Assembly (NCBI RefSeq): GCF_018598225.1
Contig: NZ_JAHESF010000036.1
Span: 1-64,000 of the forward strand
Direction: 5' to 3'
Source of the DNA: Chryseosolibacter histidinae
GTDB taxonomy: Bacteria > Bacteroidota > Bacteroidia > Cytophagales > Cyclobacteriaceae
Length of the DNA stretch: 64,000 nucleotides
The notes beneath the pieces are model-generated. The model saw only the letters and a list, made by a program, of their open reading frames with translations. It made no database searches and was not told the origin of the DNA. Positions 21,371 to 52,521 of the stretch are shown here, piece after piece. Numbering within the stretch: position 1 is the first letter of the stretch; every line of letters starts with the position of its first letter. Made by a program: the position numbers and the translations under genes.

Positions 21371-23182
21371 ATGGACAATAACAAGATCAGGAACATCGCT
21401 ATTATCGCTCACGTTGACCACGGTAAAACCACCCTGGTTGACAAACTGCTTATGGCCGGTAAACTTTTTAAAGACCATGAGAACCCCGGTGAGCTGATCA
21501 TGGATAGCAACGACCTGGAACGCGAAAGGGGTATTACCATCCTGGCAAAGAACGTTTCCGTTCGGTATAAAGATTATAAGATCAACGTTATAGATACCCC
21601 TGGTCACAGCGACTTTGGTGGTGAAGTTGAGCGTGTGTTGAACATGGCCGACGGTTGTCTGCTGCTGGTGGATGCCTTTGAAGGTCCCATGCCGCAAACC
21701 CGCTTCGTGCTGCAGAAAGCGCTGCAATTGGGCCTGAAGCCTATTGTGGTGATCAATAAGGTTGACAAGAAGAACTGTACACCTGACGAAGTGCACGAGC
21801 AGGTATTCGACCTGATGTTTCAGCTCGATGCTACGGAAGACCAGCTCGACTTCCCGGCATTCTATGGCTCAGCCAAACAAGGATGGATGAGCACCGACTG
21901 GAAAAATCCTACAACAGACATTACACCGCTGCTGGATGGTATCATTCAGCATATCCCCGCACCCAAGATCGCCGAAGGTGCAACGCAGATGCTGATCACA
22001 TCGCTGGAATACTCTTCTTATATCGGACGGGTAGCCATCGGCCGTGTGCACAGGGGCTCCATCAAAGCCGGACAGAACCTGGCGCTGGTGAAACGCGATT
22101 CCAAAGCAGTGGTGAAAGCAAAGCTCAAAGACCTCTATGTATTCGAGGGATTTGAAAAACAAAAACTTGAAGAAGTAAAAGCTGGCGAGATCTGCGCGCT
22201 GGTAGGACTCGAAGGTTTCGAGATCGGTGATACCGTTACCGATCCTGAGAAGCCCGAAGCGATGAAGTCCATCGCCATCGATGAGCCTACTATGAGCATG
22301 ATGTTCACCATCAACAACTCGCCTTTCTATGGTAAAGAAGGTAAGTTCGTTACGTCACGCCACATCAAGGAAAGGCTCGACAAAGAGCTCGAGAAGAACC
22401 TGGCGTTGCGCGTAGGCGATACCGGTTCTGCCGATTCGTTTATGGTGTTTGGCCGTGGTGTACTGCACTTGTCAGTATTGATCGAGACCATGCGCCGGGA
22501 AGGATACGAGCTTCAGATCGGTCAGCCTCAGGTGATCTTTAAGGAAATTGACGGCGTGAAATCAGAGCCTATCGAAGAGCTCACCATCGACCTTCCGGAG
22601 ACCGACGCCGGAAAGGCCATCGAAACCGTTTCACAGCGCAAAGGTGAGATGCTGAACATGGAACCCAAAGGAGATCGTATGATCCTGAAGTTCCACATCC
22701 CTTCACGCGGTATCATTGGTTTGAGAAACTACCTGCTGAATGTAACTGCCGGTGAAGCGATCGTAACACACCGCTTCAAGGAATATCAGCCTTACAAAGG
22801 TGAGATACCCGGACGTATCAACGGTTCGCTCATTGTGATGGAACAGGGCGAAGCCATTGCCTACAGCTTGCACAACCTGCAGGATCGTGGTAAGTTCTTC
22901 ATCGATCCAGGTGAGCCTGTATACGAAGGTCAGGTGATCGGCGAGCACAGCCGCAGCGGCGACCTGGTGATCAACGTTACCAAAACGAAGAAGCTCACCA
23001 ACATGCGCGCTACCGGAGCTGACGAAAAGATGCGCATCGCTCCTCCGATCAAGTTTTCGCTCGAAGAAGCGCTGGAATACATCCAGTCTGACGAATACGT
23101 GGAAGTGACCCCCAAGTCGATCCGCCTCCGCAAGATCTACCTCAACGAGAACGACAGGAAGCGGTTTTCAAAGAACAACTGA
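21371..23182 (+). CDS. typA: Translational GTPase TypA/BipA
   Basis: A 603-residue ribosome-associated GTPase related to EF-G and LepA, involved in ribosome assembly and stress adaptation. G1 [10 protein letters not shown]2 [12 protein letters not shown]3 [11 protein letters not shown] and G4 NKVDKKN are intact. The C-terminal half has the TypA-specific domain ([20 protein letters not shown]). Full length for the family. A -7 element lies upstream and an intrinsic terminator 27 bp downstream, so it is monocistronic. Confidence 0.98.
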
Positions 23183-23208
23183 TATCTCTATAACATGAGT
23201 ATACAAAG

Positions 23209-23232
23209 AGCCGGGTAACACCGGCTTTTTTG
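23209..23232 (+). terminator. Intrinsic terminator of typA
   Basis: AGCCGG-gtaaca-CCGGCT followed by TTTTTGTTTTT, 27 bp after the typA stop. Confidence 0.85.
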
Positions 23233-23241
23233 TTTTTGAAG

Positions 23242-23374
23242 AGTCCATGGTCCATAGTCGATAGTCCATGGCCCGGATAGTGTTTAATCGAGTACGCTAC
23301 CCACTTTGACTTAGTACTCCTCACTGATTCATGTGGTGCTCTGCCATGGACTATGGACCATCGACTATGGACTT
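23242..23374. repeat. Inverted GGACTATGGACC island
   Basis: Left arm 23242-23272 (gtccatggtccatagtcg, then atagtccatgg) and right arm 23343-23374 (ccatggactatggacca, then tcgactatggac) are inverted copies separated by about 70 bp. The same vocabulary appears at 12369, 32543, 52343, 52434, 55906, 56385 and 56447. Confidence 0.85.
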
Positions 23375-23429
23375 ATTCTCAGAATTTTTTCTTAACTTAC
23401 ATAAGCAGTCTTTTTAACCATCCCCCCAC

Positions 23430-24071
23430 ATGGAGAAAAAGTGCCGTCAAAGGTTGGCTTACTTCGGCGTTCAGCGATCTCCCATCTGCTACCTTATTTT
23501 CTTTTTTTCGATTTGCATCACATCTTTATCGGCACAGCAAAAAACGCACGACGGCCAGACTTACACCTTATATAAGCCGGGTCACTTCAAACCCGGGCAT
23601 GGACTGGTATATTCCATATTTGTGTCACCAGTGCTCACCGTCGACCCGATGGGTTTTGGCGGCAAAAGCACCTATGCCCTTGGCGGAGGCGCAAGGATCA
23701 ACCTGTGGGAATCAAAATCACCCGACAATCTCTTGCAGGGCCTGAAAATAAAAGGACTGTACACGGCATTCGGCTACGAGTATTATCCCCAGCAATACGA
23801 TAAGCTTTACGCGAGTCTGTGGCTGCGCATCAAAACCTTTATGCCCATCGCCGCAAGGGTAGACAAGGTGCTCGACATCGGTGAAACGGTTACGGGCTCA
23901 TCATTGCGCGTCTGCTTCGGATTCGAAGTGAAAAGCGTGACCGTCTTCTTGTGTGGCGTCACCGGCTTCAGCCTGCATCATCCTGACAACATTGAAACAC
24001 ACTATGCGAACTCCGGTGCCGTGATGGTGATCGTCCCTGTTTACAACCATTCAACCCGAAAGAACCAATGA
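23430..24071 (+). CDS. Exported protein, first gene of the caspase operon
   Basis: 213 residues, no family recognised. A long basic n-region and a hydrophobic stretch ICYLIFFFSICITSLSAQQ end in a likely signal-peptidase site near residue 36. The mature part has alternating hydrophobic strands (GLVYSIFVSPVLTV, LKIKGLYTAFGYEY, VTVFLCGVTGFSL), consistent with a small outer-membrane barrel or surface protein. Its stop overlaps the start of the next gene (ATGA, 24068-24071), so it is translationally coupled to the rest of the operon. Confidence 0.75.
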   Translation: MEKKCRQRLAYFGVQRSPICYLIFFFSICITSLSAQQKTHDGQTYTLYKPGHFKPGHGLVYSIFVSPVLTVDPMGFGGKSTYALGGGARINLWESKSPDNLLQGLKIKGLYTAFGYEYYPQQYDKLYASLWLRIKTFMPIAARVDKVLDIGETVTGSSLRVCFGFEVKSVTVFLCGVTGFSLHHPDNIETHYANSGAVMVIVPVYNHSTRKNQ

Positions 24072-24808
24072 CGTATGCTCAGCGATCTTTTTTAGGTTTT
24101 TGCTTGCTGTTACTGTCCTCACATGCAAACGCGCAGAAGCTCAATGTGGGCATCACGTTCCAGTACCACGTGCTCAAACAGGTGAAGGTTGACAGTGACA
24201 TCATCAAAGGAGCCTATTCCTACAGTCAGTACTATGTGAAAGACAATCGCTGGAAGTTTTTTTCAGCGGGGCAGTCCATCGTGATTGGTACTGTGCTGCA
24301 GCTGGACTACAAACGCTTCTATGCAACCATCGAACCTTCTTACAATCTCAATACTTACAATTATGTTGTAGAATATCCAGTGGAGCCGGACAGGAATGAG
24401 CGGATCAACTTTCAGCCATTGCTTTTCCAGGTCGATGTGCCGTTCTACCTCGGATTTCAGTTCAAGTCATCCACCTTTGTGCGATACTCTTTCTTCGCGG
24501 GCGGTGTTGCTGTCATTCCCTACTTCATCAGCTACCAGCTCCGCTCACGGCTCGCGGATAATCCGCAGTACGATTATTTCCACTCGGGTGATATGCGGAA
24601 TATCTTGTACGACACCGAACCCTATTTCAATACGTTGCTCGGCTTCGGCCTCCACTTCGCAAGCCTGGGCAAGATCGACCTGCGTTACCAGCATCGCATT
24701 GGGTCGCCAGGCGATGTGTATGCTGTCACCTTCAATACGGTGGGTGCTGCCGTCACGTATTATCTGCCATTGGATCTGAAAAGGAAAAAGATCTACTATG
24801 AAGACTAA
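24068..24808 (+). CDS. Outer-membrane beta-barrel-like protein in caspase operon
   Basis: 246 residues starting with a signal peptide (LGFCLLLLSSHANAQ). The rest alternates polar and hydrophobic residues (SIVIGTVLQLDYKRFYATIE, LFQVDVPFYLGFQF) and near the end has AVTYYLPLDL, as expected for a barrel of about 10-12 strands. No specific family recognised; it resembles generic Bacteroidota barrels. It overlaps both neighbours: 4 bp upstream and 11 bp downstream (24798-24808). Confidence 0.8.
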   Translation: MTYAQRSFLGFCLLLLSSHANAQKLNVGITFQYHVLKQVKVDSDIIKGAYSYSQYYVKDNRWKFFSAGQSIVIGTVLQLDYKRFYATIEPSYNLNTYNYVVEYPVEPDRNERINFQPLLFQVDVPFYLGFQFKSSTFVRYSFFAGGVAVIPYFISYQLRSRLADNPQYDYFHSGDMRNILYDTEPYFNTLLGFGLHFASLGKIDLRYQHRIGSPGDVYAVTFNTVGAAVTYYLPLDLKRKKIYYED

Positions 24809-25790
24809 AGCGCTCATCGCCTTGCTGCTGTTGATGTTTGCCAGCGCGTGTGAAGTGATCTTTGACAGCGACATGCGTTACCTGCCGGTGCGCGATCCCA
24901 CGGCAGTGGTGCTGAAGAACCGGCTGGTAAGTTATACCAGCACCGAGCTGGTGTATGAGACTGATGTGTTGTTGCTGGAGATCTACGACGGATGGGACAA
25001 TACATTCCTGGAAAAAGAGGATTTTGTGTTTGGCGGAAGTTTCAAAACCACAGTGCTTGATTTTCAGCGCGTGTCTTCCGGCAACACCGGTGCTTCGTCT
25101 TCATTGTTGCTCCTGGATGCCAGTGGATCTTACAAGACAACAGATCCTTACAACGCAAGGTCGCAGGCCATCAACAAGTTCTTTCACGATCATTCGCCAC
25201 CCGAGGACTTTTTATTGGGTGCATTTTCAAAGAACGGATCGCTGACAGGCGATGGTGTTGAATTCTACAGTGAGCACTTCAGCTCCGATCATGAGCAGCC
25301 TACCCGGTATCTGTTCGATCTTGCCAAACGTACGGGAGGCAGCAGCTCGCTTTATGATGCGTTGTATAAAAGCATTGATAAGTTCGATGCCGGGAATCAT
25401 CGCAAGGAGCTGGTCTCGCTCGTGCATGCCCCTGATAACGCAAGCAGTGTTCCGTGGCCGGATGTTGTACAAAAAGCAAAGGCAAACGGCGTACGCATGC
25501 ACATGATCGGCCTGGGAAGTGAGGTGTCGCTTTCATCGTTGGCCGCCATCGCCCAGGAGACAGGTGGTTTCTTTGCCGCTTGCCGCGATGAAAAGGAAAT
25601 GGTATGTGTGTTCAATCAGCTCCACCGGTTATTGAATAGCAACATGGAGGCCTATCGCATCCGGGTGAAAGTAGAGCCACCCGCCGGCACGATCGCGTCG
25701 GGCCTGGAGTGGATGCAGGCAATCTACATCACTGACCCACAGTTCGCTTACGAGTATAATCCGGCCTATGTTTATCTAAAGATACCGTGA
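24798..25790 (+). CDS. VWA-domain lipoprotein in caspase operon
   Basis: A 330-residue protein with a lipoprotein signal (LLLLMFASAC, lipidated Cys18), so anchored in the envelope. A von Willebrand A domain spans about residues 100-285. Its metal-binding MIDAS residues are intact: D107-A-S109-G-S111, a GGSSSLYDAL loop near 181-190, and APDNASS near 211-217. VWA domains bind protein partners through a bound metal ion. Overlap with both neighbours indicates one transcript and coupled synthesis with the caspase. Confidence 0.9.
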   Translation: MKTKALIALLLLMFASACEVIFDSDMRYLPVRDPTAVVLKNRLVSYTSTELVYETDVLLLEIYDGWDNTFLEKEDFVFGGSFKTTVLDFQRVSSGNTGASSSLLLLDASGSYKTTDPYNARSQAINKFFHDHSPPEDFLLGAFSKNGSLTGDGVEFYSEHFSSDHEQPTRYLFDLAKRTGGSSSLYDALYKSIDKFDAGNHRKELVSLVHAPDNASSVPWPDVVQKAKANGVRMHMIGLGSEVSLSSLAAIAQETGGFFAACRDEKEMVCVFNQLHRLLNSNMEAYRIRVKVEPPAGTIASGLEWMQAIYITDPQFAYEYNPAYVYLKIP

Positions 25791-28700
25791 TGAGAACCCC
25801 GTTATTTTTTGTACTCATGCTGCTATGCCTGCGCTCGTATGCGCAGCAGATCGAAGTTGCTGCACAGAAGGGACATTCCGGCGACATCATTGCATGCTCG
25901 TTCAATCATGACGGAAGACTGTTGGCCAGCGCAGGTGCCGATAACCTGATCAAGCTGTGGCATATCCCCACCGGCAAAGAAATGGCCAGCTTCATCAGCG
26001 CTTCAACAACACCGGTGAAAGCGCTTCAATTCAGTAGTGAAGATGATTTCCTGCTGGTGAAATACGCCGATGGCAGTGTGCACTCCTGGGATATTGTAAG
26101 CTCCGGTCTTCGGTCATCTACGGAGCCGTCGCGTGTTGTTACCAAAGACCCGTTGAACTATTACACTCGTGACTCATTGTTCCAGGTCTTTGTTGACCGT
26201 TTCTACCTGCGCAAAAAAGACCGGCGCACCGGCAGGATCACGTTTTCAAAAGTGCCCGTAGATATTTCCAAAAACTTCAGGGCCGTGGCTGTGTCAGAAG
26301 AACATCGCACCATCGTGGCTGCGAATGAAGACGGCAAAGCTTATGTCTATGATCTCGACAAAGGCAGGAGCGTGACGGTGCTCGATGGCCATTACGCTGC
26401 CGTGAACAGTGTTTGTTTTGCGCCTGACGGAAAAATGTTTGCTACGGCCGGCGCAGACCGCTCGATCATTATCTGGAACACGCAGGGCTTTCAGCAGGTG
26501 CGGAGATTGTTTGGTCGCTCGTTCCGCTTCGAAGCGTTGGCTTTCAACCATGCCGGTACGCAGCTGGCAGTGGGCGATGAGCTGGGGCGTGGTAGGCTCA
26601 TTGACCTCGAGTCGAGTCGTGTAAGGGTATCGGTTGCACCGTGGCATGAGCAGAAGGTGTCCGCCCTTGCCTTTGCTGCGAACGATAGTGTCATCTTCAG
26701 CGGTGGTTATGACAACAGGCTTGTGTCTTTTGACGTGCGCAGTGGAAAAATCATTCACAAAGAGGTATATAAGCATTATGTGAGTACCGGCGATCTCGTG
26801 TTGAAAAAATTGAAAGCTTACCGCGAGCCGTATGCATGGATCAATACTGTTGCCGTAAGCCCTGGCGGCACCTGGACTGCCTGCGGTGGTGGCTGGCGCG
26901 AATCGGAGGTACGGGAGCAACCCCAGGCATTGCAGGTGAGAAATTTAATAAATGGTGAGTCATATAAACTTTTAGCGCATCAGGGCGCCGTCAACGACAT
27001 CTGCTTTTTGAATGACCTTCAGTTTCTCAGTGCCGGCGCGGATGGCCTGTTACAGTGGCATTACGATGCAGCTTTGCATCAATTCTATTTCAGAAAGAAA
27101 CCAACGGTATTGGCAGGTATTGAAAAAATACTTCCAGGCAAAGGTGATACGGTGCTGCTTCAGCGTGGCAATGCCCTTGTGCTGTATGACCTGCGCAAAG
27201 AACAGATGCTCGATTCCATTCACGCACCCGCGGCCATCGCGTCTGTAAGTTTCGAAAGGAACACAGGCAGGCTGATCTATGCCGTGTTCAACAAACTCGT
27301 GTTCACAGACATTTCCGGCTGGCACAACGCGCGGCCTGTTAACAAAGAAGCGCATACGGACAAGATCACGGGCATCGCATTCAATGCTGCAAAAAGAATG
27401 ATCGCCACCTCCAGCTGGGACGCCACCGTAAAACTCTGGAATGCCGACAGTGGAGAGCTGCTTGCCACCATCATTTCCATCGGCAGCGACGATCACCTCA
27501 TCATCACACCGGATAATTATTACTATGGTACCCGAAACTCGCTGCGTGGCATCGGGTTCAAGTATGGAAAACAGTTTATCTCGCCGGAACAGTACGACCT
27601 GCGATTCAACCGCCCTGATATTGTGCTGGCGCGGCTGGGATTTGTGCCTAAGGAAGTGGTGCGTTCATTTCATCGCGCTTATCAGAAACGACTTCAGAAA
27701 ATGAACTTCACAGAGCAGATGTTAGGTGAAGAGATCCATTTGCCGGAGACCAGGGCCAACACAGACAAGCTGCCGTTGCATACTGCGGAGGCGCAGGTGG
27801 CTTTTGATGTGGTTGCGTCCGATTCGAAATATGACCTTGACAGGATCAATGTGTTTGTTAACAACATTCCCCTTTATGGCATCCAGGGCATTGACCTGAG
27901 AGGGAAAGGCATGAAGCAGATCACGCAATCCGTGAGTGTTGCGCTGTCGGCAGGCAAGAACAAGATCCAGGTCTCGTGCCTGAATGAGAAGGGTGTAGAG
28001 TCGCTGCTGCAAACTTTTGAAATTGATCACAGACCAGCAAAAGTTACACGTCCCCGTTTGCACGTGGCGGTTGTTTCTGTATCAAATTACGCCAACGCTA
28101 CCATGAATTTGAAATACGCCCGCAAAGACGGCCAGGACCTGGTGAACATGTTCAGGCGCTCGGGGTGGTTCGACAAGATCACCGTCGATACGTTATTCGA
28201 TGCCCGTGCTACCCGCGACAACATCCTGAAGCTTCGTGAAAAATTCATGCAAACGGGTGTAGACGACCAGGTGATCTTTTTCGTCTCCGGTCACGGCCTG
28301 CTGGACGATAACCTCGACTTTTATTTCGCCACGCACAATGTGGATTTCAAGAACCCCGCTTCCGGTGGACTGCGTTACGAAGAGCTTGAAGGTTTGCTCG
28401 ACGGCATTCCTGCACGAAAAAAACTATTGCTGATGGATGCCTGCCATTCGGGCGAAGTGGATAAGTCGCGCATTACCGTATCGCAGTCGTCAACGGTGCT
28501 GAGTAAAAACCAGAAAGGCACCATTACCGAATACACTTACCCCGCAGACATTCAGCAGGAGCACTATGAAATAGGCATCACCACTTCGTTCGAGCTTATG
28601 CAGGAGCTGTTCTCCAATCTCAGCAAAGGTTCAGGTGCGGTGGTGATCTCCGCGGCAGCCGGCAACAGCTTCGCCCTGGAGTCTGACGAGTGGCGCAACG

Positions 28701-28885
28701 GCGTGTTTACCTATGCGTTGATCAACGGCGTGAAAAGCCGCAGCGCCGACCAGAACAGAAACGGCGAGATCACCGTCAGCGAGCTGAAAGATTTCATCAG
28801 CGAAGAAGTACAGAAGCTCACCAACGGTGCCCAGAAACCTACCTCACGAAGAGAGAACCTGGAGTTCGATTTCAGGGTGTGGTGA
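25790..28885 (+). CDS. Exported WD40-repeat caspase-family (C14) protein
   Basis: About 1031 residues. The signal peptide (FFVLMLLCLRSYAQQ) predicts export. Residues 25 to about 600 are WD40-like blades (GHSGDIIACSFNHDGRLLAS, DGKMFATAGADRSIIIWN, NAAKRMIATSSWDATVKLWN). A linker follows, then a caspase-fold domain (about 755-1025) with the catalytic pair intact: His835 in VSGHG and Cys885 in MDACHSGE. The start is ATG in TGATG, overlapping the VWA stop; a GTG one codon earlier is possible. Caspase homologues cleave after Arg/Lys or Asp; the target here is unknown. Last gene of the operon. Confidence 0.93.
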   Translation: MRTPLFFVLMLLCLRSYAQQIEVAAQKGHSGDIIACSFNHDGRLLASAGADNLIKLWHIPTGKEMASFISASTTPVKALQFSSEDDFLLVKYADGSVHSWDIVSSGLRSSTEPSRVVTKDPLNYYTRDSLFQVFVDRFYLRKKDRRTGRITFSKVPVDISKNFRAVAVSEEHRTIVAANEDGKAYVYDLDKGRSVTVLDGHYAAVNSVCFAPDGKMFATAGADRSIIIWNTQGFQQVRRLFGRSFRFEALAFNHAGTQLAVGDELGRGRLIDLESSRVRVSVAPWHEQKVSALAFAANDSVIFSGGYDNRLVSFDVRSGKIIHKEVYKHYVSTGDLVLKKLKAYREPYAWINTVAVSPGGTWTACGGGWRESEVREQPQALQVRNLINGESYKLLAHQGAVNDICFLNDLQFLSAGADGLLQWHYDAALHQFYFRKKPTVLAGIEKILPGKGDTVLLQRGNALVLYDLRKEQMLDSIHAPAAIASVSFERNTGRLIYAVFNKLVFTDISGWHNARPVNKEAHTDKITGIAFNAAKRMIATSSWDATVKLWNADSGELLATIISIGSDDHLIITPDNYYYGTRNSLRGIGFKYGKQFISPEQYDLRFNRPDIVLARLGFVPKEVVRSFHRAYQKRLQKMNFTEQMLGEEIHLPETRANTDKLPLHTAEAQVAFDVVASDSKYDLDRINVFVNNIPLYGIQGIDLRGKGMKQITQSVSVALSAGKNKIQVSCLNEKGVESLLQTFEIDHRPAKVTRPRLHVAVVSVSNYANATMNLKYARKDGQDLVNMFRRSGWFDKITVDTLFDARATRDNILKLREKFMQTGVDDQVIFFVSGHGLLDDNLDFYFATHNVDFKNPASGGLRYEELEGLLDGIPARKKLLLMDACHSGEVDKSRITVSQSSTVLSKNQKGTITEYTYPADIQQEHYEIGITTSFELMQELFSNLSKGSGAVVISAAAGNSFALESDEWRNGVFTYALINGVKSRSADQNRNGEITVSELKDFISEEVQKLTNGAQKPTSRRENLEFDFRVW

Positions 28886-28887
28886 AA

Positions 28888-28964
28888 ATGTCCCGCAGAT
28901 TTCGCAGATGAACGCAGATTAAATTCTGTATTATCTGCGCTAATCAGCGTGATCTGCGGGACAT
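28888..28964. repeat. Inverted GCAGATTTCGCAGATT hairpin between convergent genes
   Basis: Perfect 13-bp outer arms ATGTCCCGCAGAT (28888-28900) and ATCTGCGGGACAT (28952-28964), with further GCAGATT words inside. It fills almost the whole 84-bp gap between the caspase gene and icmF and could end transcription from both sides. A related hairpin is at 42561-42640. Confidence 0.85.
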
Positions 28965-28969
28965 GCATT

Positions 28970-31900
28970 TTACATATTCCTCCTGTACTGTCCCCCCACT
29001 TCAAACAACGCCTTGGTGATCTGCCCCAGGGAGCAAACTTTAGTGGCTTCCATCAGCTCGGCGAAGATGTTCTTGTTCTGGACGGCGGCCTGCTGGATGC
29101 GTTCGAGCATTGCTCCGGCCTTGTCGCGCTGGAAGGTTTGAAGGTGACGCAGCATCTTGATCTGGTATTCCTTTTCTTCTGTGGTGGCGCGGATCACTTC
29201 TTGTGGTATGATCGTGGGCGATCCCTTCGAGCTCAGGAAAGTATTTACACCAATGATCGGGTATTCACCTGTGTGTTTTAGTGTTTCGTAGTAGAGGCTT
29301 TCTTCCTGGATTTTGCCACGCTGATACATCGTTTCCATGGCACCGAGCACGCCGCCACGTTCGGTGATGCGGTCAAACTCGGCAAGCACTGCTTCTTCTA
29401 CGAGGTCTGTAAGCTCTTCGATGATGAACGATCCCTGCGTGGGGTTTTCATTCTTCGCCAGCCCAAGCTCTTTGTTGATGATCAGCTGAATGGCCATGGC
29501 CCGCCGCACCGATTCCTCTGTAGGCGTTGTGATGGCCTCATCGTAAGCGTTAGTGTGAAGCGAGTTGCAGTTGTCATAAATAGCATACAACGCCTGCAGT
29601 GTGGTGCGGATGTCGTTGAAGTCTATCTCCTGCGCGTGCAGTGAGCGGCCCGAAGTCTGGATGTGGTATTTCAGCATCTGGCTGCGGGCATTGGCGCCGT
29701 ATTTATTCTTCATGGCCTTGGCCCACAATCTTCTCGCCACTCGTCCTATCACAGCATACTCAGGGTCTATTCCGTTGCTGAAGAAGAATGAAAGGTTCGG
29801 CGCAAAGTCGTTAATGTCCATGCCGCGGCTCAGGTAATATTCCACGTAAGTGAAGCCGTTGGCCAGTGTGAAGGCCAGCTGCGTGATGGGGTTGGCGCCC
29901 GCTTCGGCAATGTGATAACCCGAGATGGATACAGAATAGAAATTTCTAATGTCCTTGTCGATAAAGTACTGCTGCACATCACCCATCAGGCGCAGCGCGA
30001 ATTCCGTGGAGAAGATGCAGGTGTTCTGAGCCTGGTCTTCTTTGAGAATGTCGGCCTGCACGGTGCCGCGTACTTGTGATAGTGTTTCAGTTTTGATCTT
30101 TTCATAAACATCCTTCGGCAGCACCTGGTCGCCGGTAACACCCAGAAGCATCAGGCCAAGGCCATCGTTACCTTTTGGCAAATTGCCCTGGTAGGAGGGA
30201 TGCTCGCCTTCATGGTCTTTGTAGATCTCGGCGATCTTTTTCTTTACTTCCGCTTCGAGGCCGTTCTTCTTGATGTAGAGCTCGCATTGCTGATCGATGG
30301 CCGCGTTCATGAAGTATCCCAGCAGCATGGGCGCAGGGCCGTTGATGGTCATGGATACAGAAGTTTTCGGGTCGGCCAGGTTGAAGCCGCTGTACAACTT
30401 CTTGGCATCGTCGAGGCAGCAGATGCTCACACCCGAGTTGCCGATCTTGCCATAGATATCCGGGCGATAATCAGGATCGTTGCCGTATAACGTTACCGAA
30501 TCGAAAGCGGTAGACAATCGTTTGGCCGGCATGGCCAGGCTCACATAATGGAAACGCCTGTTGGTTCTTTCAGGACCACCTTCACCCGCAAACATACGGG
30601 TAGGGTCTTCGCCTTCACGTTTAAAGGGATAGATTCCTGCCGTGTATGGGAACTCGCCGGGCACATTCTCTTGCAGACTCCACTGCAGCAGGTCACCCCA
30701 CGCTTCGTATTTCGGAAGCGCTACTTTGGGTATCTGGAGGTGCGAGAGTGACTCCGTATGTGTTTTGATGCCGATCTCCTTATCGCGTACCTTGAATTTG
30801 AATAATGGTTCCTTGTATTTCTTTACTGTCAACACCCATTCTTCTATCAGCTTCCAGTTTTTCGGGTCGAGGTTGAGCTTCACTTTTTCGTATTGTTCTT
30901 GCAGGCCTTTGATAAGCCGGTCCTTGTCTTCAATCGAAGAGGCTTTCAATGAAGCGATCGATTTTTCTAGGGCATAAAGCTGCTGCGCTATCTCTTTCTG
31001 CTCGGTTGTCCAGGTGTCATATTTTCTGTTGTTCTCCGAGATCTCGCTCAGGTAGCGGGTGCGGTGTGGAGGGATCACAAAAATTTTCTCCGACATCTCG
31101 CGCGTGATCTCGAAGGTCGAGCGCAGGTTGGCGCCAGTCTTCTCTGCAACTTTGTCGATCACCTGCTTGTAGAGCTGGTTGGTGCCGGGGTCGTTGAACT
31201 GCGAGGCAATGGTTCCAAATACCGGCATATCTTCAACCTTGCTGGTCCAGAGCTGGTGGTTGCGCTGAAATTGTTTTTTTACATCACGCAGGGCATCGAG
31301 GGCGCCTCGCTTGTCGAACTTGTTCAGCGCTATCACGTCGGCAAAGTCGAGCATGTCGATCTTTTCCAGTTGCGTGGCGGCGCCATATTCCGGGGTCATC
31401 ACATACAGCGATACGTTGCTGTGGTCCAGGATCTCGGTGTCGCTCTGTCCGATGCCCGAGGTTTCCAGTATGATGAGGTCGAAGCCTGCAGCCTTCAGGA
31501 TCATCACCGCTTCTTTCACATAGGCCGACAGCGCCAGGTTGCTTTGTCTGGTGGCCAGTGAACGCATGTACACCCTGGGATTGTTAATGGCATTCATCCG
31601 GATGCGGTCACCCAGCAATGCGCCACCCGTTTTGCGTTTGGAAGGATCAACGGAGATGATGCCGATCTTTTTGTCTTTGAAGTCAATGAGAAAACGTCTC
31701 ACCATCTCATCCACAATAGAAGATTTTCCTGCGCCACCTGTACCTGTAATACCCAGCACAGGTGTTTGAGAGGCTTCCGCTTTTTTCTTTACAGCTTCGA
31801 AGATCTTTTGATGTTTGTCGTAATAGTTCTCTGCTGCGGAGATCAGCTGTGCAATGGCCAGGGGATTGTCAGTGGTCAGCGCATTGATGTCAGCAATCAC

Positions 31901-32407
31901 TTCTTCGCCGGTAGGCACATCACTTTTTTCTACCAGGTCGTTGATCATACCCTGCAGACCCAAGGCCCTGCCATCGTCAGGCGAGTAAATGCGGGTGATG
32001 CCGTAGTCCATCAGCTCTCTGATCTCTTCAGGCAATATCACACCGCCACCGCCGCCAAAGATCTTGATGTGGCCTGCGCCTTTCTCCTGCAGCAGGTCAT
32101 ACATATATTTAAAGTACTCGTTATGCCCGCCCTGGTAGCTGGTCATGGCAATGGCTTGCGCATCTTCCTGGATGGCCGTGTTCACCACCTCTTCCACGCT
32201 GCGGTCATGCCCCAGGTGTATCACCTCGCAGCCGGTAGCCTGGATGATCCTTCGCATGATGTTGATCGCTGCATCGTGCCCATCAAAAAGGCTGGCGGCC
32301 GTCACGATCCGCACCTTGTTTTTCGGCTTATAGGGTGCCGGAGCCTTATGCCCACTCAGGTCAGGCTGTTTTTCCTTCTTTTCTGCGCTAACGGTCTGTG
32401 TACTCAT
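28970..32407 (-). CDS. icmF: Fused isobutyryl-CoA mutase (IcmF)
   Basis: A 1145-residue adenosylcobalamin enzyme that interconverts isobutyryl-CoA and butyryl-CoA and carries its own G-protein chaperone. Order: B12-binding domain (about 30-160, DGH at 42-44, [11 protein letters not shown]), MeaB-like GTPase (Walker [13 protein letters not shown], 219-230; [14 protein letters not shown] for base recognition), then the mutase barrel (about 570-1145, [20 protein letters not shown]). The fused order is that of IcmF, not of MutA/MutB. Some fused mutases prefer isovaleryl- or pivalyl-CoA, which I cannot decide here. Confidence 0.95.

Positions 32408-52319: not shown

Positions 52320-52521
<202 letters not shown>

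What the first reader, a model, noticed from the sequence alone, without database searches (positions are those of the whole stretch)
23430..28885. Four-gene envelope operon ending in an exported WD40-caspase and a VWA lipoprotein
All four proteins carry export signals and neighbouring genes overlap (4, 11 and 1 bp). The VWA domain keeps its MIDAS residues (Asp107, Ser109, Ser111) and the caspase keeps His835 and Cys885. A caspase placed outside the cytoplasm, next to a metal-dependent adhesion domain and two presumed barrels, suggests a surface sensing-and-cleavage device: WD40 and VWA as binding platforms, caspase as effector. Most described bacterial caspase systems act inside the cell.
Basis: partly seen in the sequence, partly recalled or inferred. 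Interest (0 to 1): 0.72.

Follow-up and report, generated by a model that had tools for sequence, protein, structure and literature searches.

The report
Exported caspase operon in bacterial envelope
This is a four-gene unit, found in scattered Bacteroidota, that sends a caspase-type protease out of the cell's interior together with a lipoprotein and at least one outer-membrane barrel, so it may be an undescribed sensing-and-cutting device of the cell envelope whose trigger and target are unknown.

Summary
The operon is real and is more than a chance neighbourhood. Four genes (23430-28885) overlap by 4, 11 and 1 bp. They encode B1, an exported beta-rich protein of unsure fold; B2, an 8-strand outer-membrane barrel; a VWA lipoprotein; and an exported WD40-caspase with intact His835/Cys885. 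The same VWA-caspase unit, mostly in the same order, occurs at 15 further loci in Bacteroidota at 14-31% identity for the VWA protein. In an unbiased survey of 395 genomes, 4 of 6 full-length matches to this VWA family lie immediately upstream of this caspase. A same-genus genome has only ~170 bp at the site, so the unit is a discrete accessory module. The VWA-linked caspases are not one clade (AU p = 8e-6), so partners were swapped, gained or lost repeatedly. Related exported caspases sit beside other barrel or lipoprotein genes.

The five positions read D-S-S-S-H, and no caspase-linked VWA examined has the canonical set, so metal-dependent adhesion is unsupported. Best reading: an outer-membrane-tethered periplasmic caspase gated by barrel and lipoprotein. 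Architecture is supported; trigger, substrate and outcome are inferred. No description of the cassette was found in the searched library.

The parts
23205..23230 (+). Intrinsic-terminator-like hairpin after typA; suggests the operon is transcribed separately from typA
   Evidence: 10-pair stem with T-run, (consensus match only)
23430..24071 (+). B1: exported protein of 213 aa, beta-rich; barrel possible but not shown
   Evidence: ORF; signal ...CYLIFFFSICITSLSAQQ; no Pfam family; AF2 model pLDDT 47; 50% identical homologue in the same place in L084, size and place kept elsewhere, cross-group homology unproven
24068..24808 (+). B2: 8-strand outer-membrane beta-barrel protein of 246 aa with Sec signal
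   Evidence: 6 of 13 family members match OMP_b-brl_2 PF13568, best 6.7e-5; AF2 pLDDT 82; Foldseek OmpA/Ail/NspA-type barrels, best E 4.4e-6
24798..25790 (+). VWA lipoprotein of 330 aa (lipobox SAC at Cys18); VWA about residues 104-267; incomplete MIDAS D107-S109-S111-S183-H210
25790..28885 (+). Exported WD40-caspase of 1031 aa (GTG alternative start at 25787): Sec signal, WD40 repeats about residues 19-330 and 510-555, conserved linker (YNRPDIVL in relatives) and Ig-like region about 560-745, C14 caspase 760-1028
   Evidence: Pfam, alignments; no further transmembrane segment by hydropathy
28292..28294 (+). Catalytic His835 codon (SGHG)
   Evidence: sequence; invariant in 97 of 97 subfamily members
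28442..28444 (+). Catalytic Cys885 codon (DACHSG)
   Evidence: sequence; 97 of 97 (most of these were retrieved with a pattern that includes this Cys)
23183..28972 (.). Accessory segment between typA (21371-23182) and a methylmalonyl-CoA-mutase-like gene (28970-32407); reduced to about 170 bp in a same-genus genome

Best explanation
The operon encodes an outer-membrane-associated periplasmic caspase module. B2 (and possibly B1) is a small barrel in the outer membrane; the VWA lipoprotein is tethered beside it; the exported protease docks to this complex through its WD40 propellers and is held inactive. When the barrel/lipoprotein part meets its trigger (envelope damage, a bound ligand, phage or competitor contact), the C14 domain is released or activated and cleaves envelope proteins, probably after basic residues. 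Shown: gene order, export signals, one barrel (by prediction), intact dyad, conserved linkage. Inferred: complex, inhibition, trigger, basic P1 specificity, substrate and outcome.
For: Linkage: 16 distinct VWA-linked caspases including the window's, most in the order B1-B2-VWA-caspase with touching genes; a tandem duplication keeps the set together (L090). Unbiased survey of 395 genomes: 4 of 6 full-length VWA-family matches lie directly upstream of the caspase. Export: 16 of 17 cassette caspases and 15 of 16 VWA proteins carry Sec or lipoprotein signals by a simple rule, against 38% any signal and 7% lipobox in background genes. Barrel. Active protease: His and Cys kept while partners diverge to about 20% identity. 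Same theme with other parts: barrel-like gene plus caspase in Bacteroidales, YCF48-type lipoprotein plus barrel-like gene (L112), barrel plus PepSY-like lipoprotein (L136).
Against: No complex, activity, localisation or phenotype is shown. Signal calls are rule-based, not SignalP. B1's fold and homology across cassettes are unproven. Some relatives of this caspase have no barrel or lipoprotein neighbour. The clear MIDAS loss removes one simple binding mechanism for the VWA.
Confidence: 0.45

Rival explanations
1. Envelope housekeeping: the caspase is a processing or quality-control protease for surface proteins, and barrel and lipoprotein present substrates to it; no death or defence outcome.
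For: Secreted clan-CD proteases of Bacteroidota such as gingipains do processing work (established knowledge). Flanks are ordinary genes, no consistent defence genes.
Against: Rare and patchy distribution, empty site in a genus-mate and scattered partnership on the tree are unlike housekeeping.
Confidence: 0.25
2. Defence or self-destruction system: phage, predator or competitor contact at the outer membrane triggers periplasmic proteolysis that lyses or arrests the cell.
For: Caspases are recurrent effectors of bacterial conflict systems (PMC7159879, PMC8195603). The module is accessory and fast-diverging, with varying partners. CHAT-TPR genes adjoin two cassettes.
Against: No defence-island signal in the flanks, no relative in phage records, no experiment.
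Confidence: 0.2
3. Chance or merely conserved neighbourhood without joint function.
For: Genes in compact genomes often sit together.
Against: The set recurs with different flanks, in different families, with overlapping ends, and on distant branches of the caspase tree.
Confidence: 0.03

Closest known systems
WD40-containing prokaryotic caspase homologues / metacaspases (Asplund-Samuelsson 2012, PMC3501461)
   Same: WD40 plus Peptidase_C14 with intact His-Cys; signal-like N-terminal helices noted in part of the family
   Different: The four-gene envelope operon with VWA lipoprotein and barrel did not appear in the passages read; localisation could be assigned for only a fraction of those proteins
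EACC1-caspase two-gene system (PMC7159879; NCBIfam NF047832)
   Same: Caspase gene paired with a membrane-related constant partner
   Different: NF047832 score 82.1 is below its 140 cut-off; caspase is C-terminal here; no single-TM EACC1 partner
vWA-MoxR-VMAP ternary conflict systems (PMC7159879)
   Same: A VWA protein and a caspase in one system
   Different: No MoxR AAA+ gene; VWA here is an exported lipoprotein and the caspase carries WD40, not VMAP domains
NACHT-WD40-caspase proteins and Apaf-1-like sensors
   Same: WD40 propeller used together with a caspase
   Different: No NTPase domain seen, and the protein is exported, so ATP-driven assembly is unlikely
Small 8-strand outer-membrane proteins (OmpA, Ail, NspA; PF13568)
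   Same: Fold of B2
   Different: Function unknown; sequence identity about 10%

Membership tests
Peptidase C14 (caspase) | Domain match over curated cut-off | tested here: met
   PF00656 56.0 bits, cut-off 21.4
Peptidase C14 (caspase) | Catalytic His-Cys dyad | tested here: met
   His835, Cys885; 97 of 97 members (Cys partly biased by retrieval pattern)
Peptidase C14 (caspase) | Proteolytic activity | not testable with these tools
   needs assay
VWA domain with functional MIDAS | D-x-S-x-S plus Thr plus Asp | tested here: not met
   D107 S109 S111 S183 H210; the canonical DSSTD set is found only in caspase-free relatives (two of three; the third has DTSTD)
Outer-membrane 8-strand barrel (B2) | Family profile and fold | tested here: met
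   6 of 13 family members match PF13568 at E < 0.1, best 6.7e-5, the window member itself not; pLDDT 82 and Foldseek E 4.4e-6 to OmpA
Outer-membrane barrel (B1) | Family profile and fold | tested here: inconclusive
   No OMP match; model pLDDT 47
EACC1-caspase system | NF047832 over cut-off and EACC1 partner gene | tested here: not met
   82.1 against 140 bits; no such partner in the operon
vWA-MoxR-VMAP system | MoxR AAA+ ATPase gene adjacent | tested here: not met
   Operon has no AAA+ gene; flanks of the window operon are typA and a mutase-like gene
NACHT-WD40-caspase | NTPase domain | tested here: not met
   None among the 25 best Pfam matches shown
Known anti-phage defence system | PADLOC profile match and defence neighbourhood | tested here: not met
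   Only generic repeat and caspase profiles in the operon; no recurrent defence gene in flanks

The most novel reading that the evidence does not exclude
Bacteroidota carry a family of extracytoplasmic caspase systems in which one exported WD40-caspase effector is paired with interchangeable outer-membrane barrel and lipoprotein sensors (VWA, YCF48-like, PepSY-like, CHASE2/FecR-like), an envelope counterpart of cytoplasmic sensor-caspase death systems; this operon is its VWA type.
Probability: 0.3. Interest if true: 0.85.

Novelty: new variant of a known kind. Interest (0 to 1): 0.58.

Why it matters
Caspases in bacteria are discussed mainly as intracellular effectors. A conserved, accessory operon that places an intact caspase in the periplasm with outer-membrane partners would mean that proteolytic decision systems also work in the envelope, and it gives a defined four-gene unit with clear point mutants on which this can be tested.

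Tried and rejected
Metal-dependent adhesion by the VWA: rejected on MIDAS comparison. B1 as a proven barrel: not supported. One clade of VWA-linked caspases in this subfamily: rejected by the AU test. An apparent VWA hit near the L152 caspase was a marginal false label and was removed before the final counts. Defence-island context: no signal. Phage carriage: no relative in phage records; plasmids hold only partial VWA matches. A solved structure close to the caspase half: none by profile; the whole protein matches only WD40 chains among those shown.

Full report
What is there. The last protein holds WD40 repeats and a Peptidase_C14 domain over the curated cut-off. The third is a lipoprotein with a VWA domain: the window protein alone scores just under the Pfam cut-off, but the family profile finds CLCA1 and integrin alpha-M I-domains. 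The first two have no credible Pfam match in the window.

Is it more than chance? The caspase and the VWA protein were searched in relatives. Genes around the best hits showed the same set, B1-B2-VWA-caspase with overlapping ends, in a different genus of the same family (L040, the same contig as L100) and in another family of the class (L077, the same unit as L140), and B2-VWA-caspase in L075. A scan of about 85,000 genomes with the caspase half and gene calling around the hits gave 16 distinct VWA-linked caspases including the window's: window, L084, L100, L140 (L145 is a near-copy), L154, L075, L085, L092, two in tandem in L090, L091, L094, L095, L130, L105, L139. L085 and L139 are cut by contig ends; L105 has VWA before B2. 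Profile comparison supports homology of VWA and of B2 across the groups through linked high-scoring pairs, but not of B1. The survey of 395 genomes drawn evenly from the class is not biased by the cassette: 6 full-length VWA-family matches, 4 of them directly upstream of the caspase (G000, G198, G385, G417); the other two are in a genome without this caspase at the threshold used. The caspase subfamily itself is in 23 of the 395.

Accessory module. In a same-genus genome, typA and the mutase-like gene that flank the operon are about 170 bp apart. In another same-genus genome the gap holds unrelated genes, and a third genome of the family has others. Flanks differ between cassettes. I saw no recurrent mobile gene in the flanks, so the mode of gain or loss is open.

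History. On a tree of 97 caspase halves (quick IQ-TREE) the VWA-linked members fall in several places. At least 8 changes of label are needed, and holding them together as one clade is rejected (AU p 8e-6). So the partnership was either ancestral and lost often, or rebuilt repeatedly; either way it points to joint function. Other members of the subfamily sit next to other exported genes: a barrel-like 251-262 aa gene in Bacteroidales (only weak profile support for the barrel), a YCF48-type lipoprotein plus barrel-like gene (L112), a barrel plus PepSY-like lipoprotein (L136), FecR-like and CHASE2 genes in a few loci. 'FecR-like' is my label from the look of the sequence; Pfam gives no match. 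Many members have none of these.

Parts. B2: 6 of 13 members reach PF13568 at E < 0.1, best 6.7e-5; the AF2 model has pLDDT 82 and about eight long strands after a signal helix; Foldseek gives OmpA, Ail, NspA and OmpW type barrels. B1: no match and a poor model, though strands dominate. VWA: the five MIDAS positions are D107, S109, S111, S183, H210. The three relatives without the caspase show D-S-S-T-D (two) or D-T-S-T-D (one). The caspase-linked members vary from D-S-S-S-H to complete loss, so the domain is better seen as a scaffold or peptide-binding fold than as a metal-dependent adhesin. A C-x-K-(D/E)2 surface-export signal of the Capnocytophaga type (PMC5080379) is matched or nearly matched in some relatives, not in the window (CEVIFDSD), so which side of the outer membrane it faces is open. 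Caspase: dyad invariant; Asp883, two before the catalytic Cys, is kept in 97 of 97 (this site too was in the retrieval pattern for most), which by analogy with metacaspases (own knowledge) suggests cleavage after Arg or Lys. Prokaryotic orthocaspases are described as cutting after positively charged residues (PMC6426788 abstract).

Export. With one simple rule applied to all genes, 16 of 17 cassette caspases (L140 and its near-copy L145 both counted) and 53 of 73 other subfamily members have a signal, against 161 of 421 background genes. 15 of 16 VWA proteins have a lipobox signal against 29 of 421. There is no second hydrophobic segment in the window caspase. Periplasm is the default location; surface exposure is not shown.

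Known work. The searches of the open library found prokaryotic caspases with WD40 and with signal-like helices, and caspase-bearing conflict systems with vWA-MoxR or EACC1, all different in parts from this one. No description of this cassette was found; subscription papers are not covered.

Verdict. A conserved, accessory envelope operon with an exported, apparently catalytically intact WD40-caspase. The sensing-and-cleavage idea is plausible in outline; the adhesion part is not supported. What triggers it and what it cuts are unknown.

Noticed in passing
23250-23372 and 52339-52521: A dispersed repeat built of 7-bp units (GTCCATAGTCGATGGTCCATGG and variants), often as inverted pairs about 80-130 bp apart; 128 matches to one pattern in the genome, none to the reversed control. 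One inverted pair lies just upstream of the operon.
   Followed up: partly
G000:C60 (L049 6868-10101); also L082, L051, L083: A second exported WD40-caspase of the same genome, distant in the tree and, in L049, L082 and L051, in the same gene neighbourhood across genera; apparently vertically inherited.
   Followed up: partly
L090 4952-16029: Two copies of the cassette in tandem in one Bacteroidetes genome.
   Followed up: partly
L075 10720-11544, L130 9419-10288, L105 3292-4074, L099 4012-4812, L044 6540-7322: An exported 260-290 aa family without Pfam match recurs near these caspases; in L044 it lies by a CHASE2-like gene.
   Followed up: partly
L084 578-3982 and L091 9573-13022: TPR-CHAT proteins with a signal-like N-terminus adjoin the cassette: another caspase-fold protein in the neighbourhood.
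   Followed up: no
L050 7271-8278, L076 9231-10265, L078 9437-10501: Relatives of the VWA lipoprotein without a caspase, beside other exported genes, with canonical or near-canonical MIDAS.
   Followed up: partly
L118 (Nannocystis pusilla, Myxococcota): A member of the caspase subfamily outside Bacteroidota.
   Followed up: no
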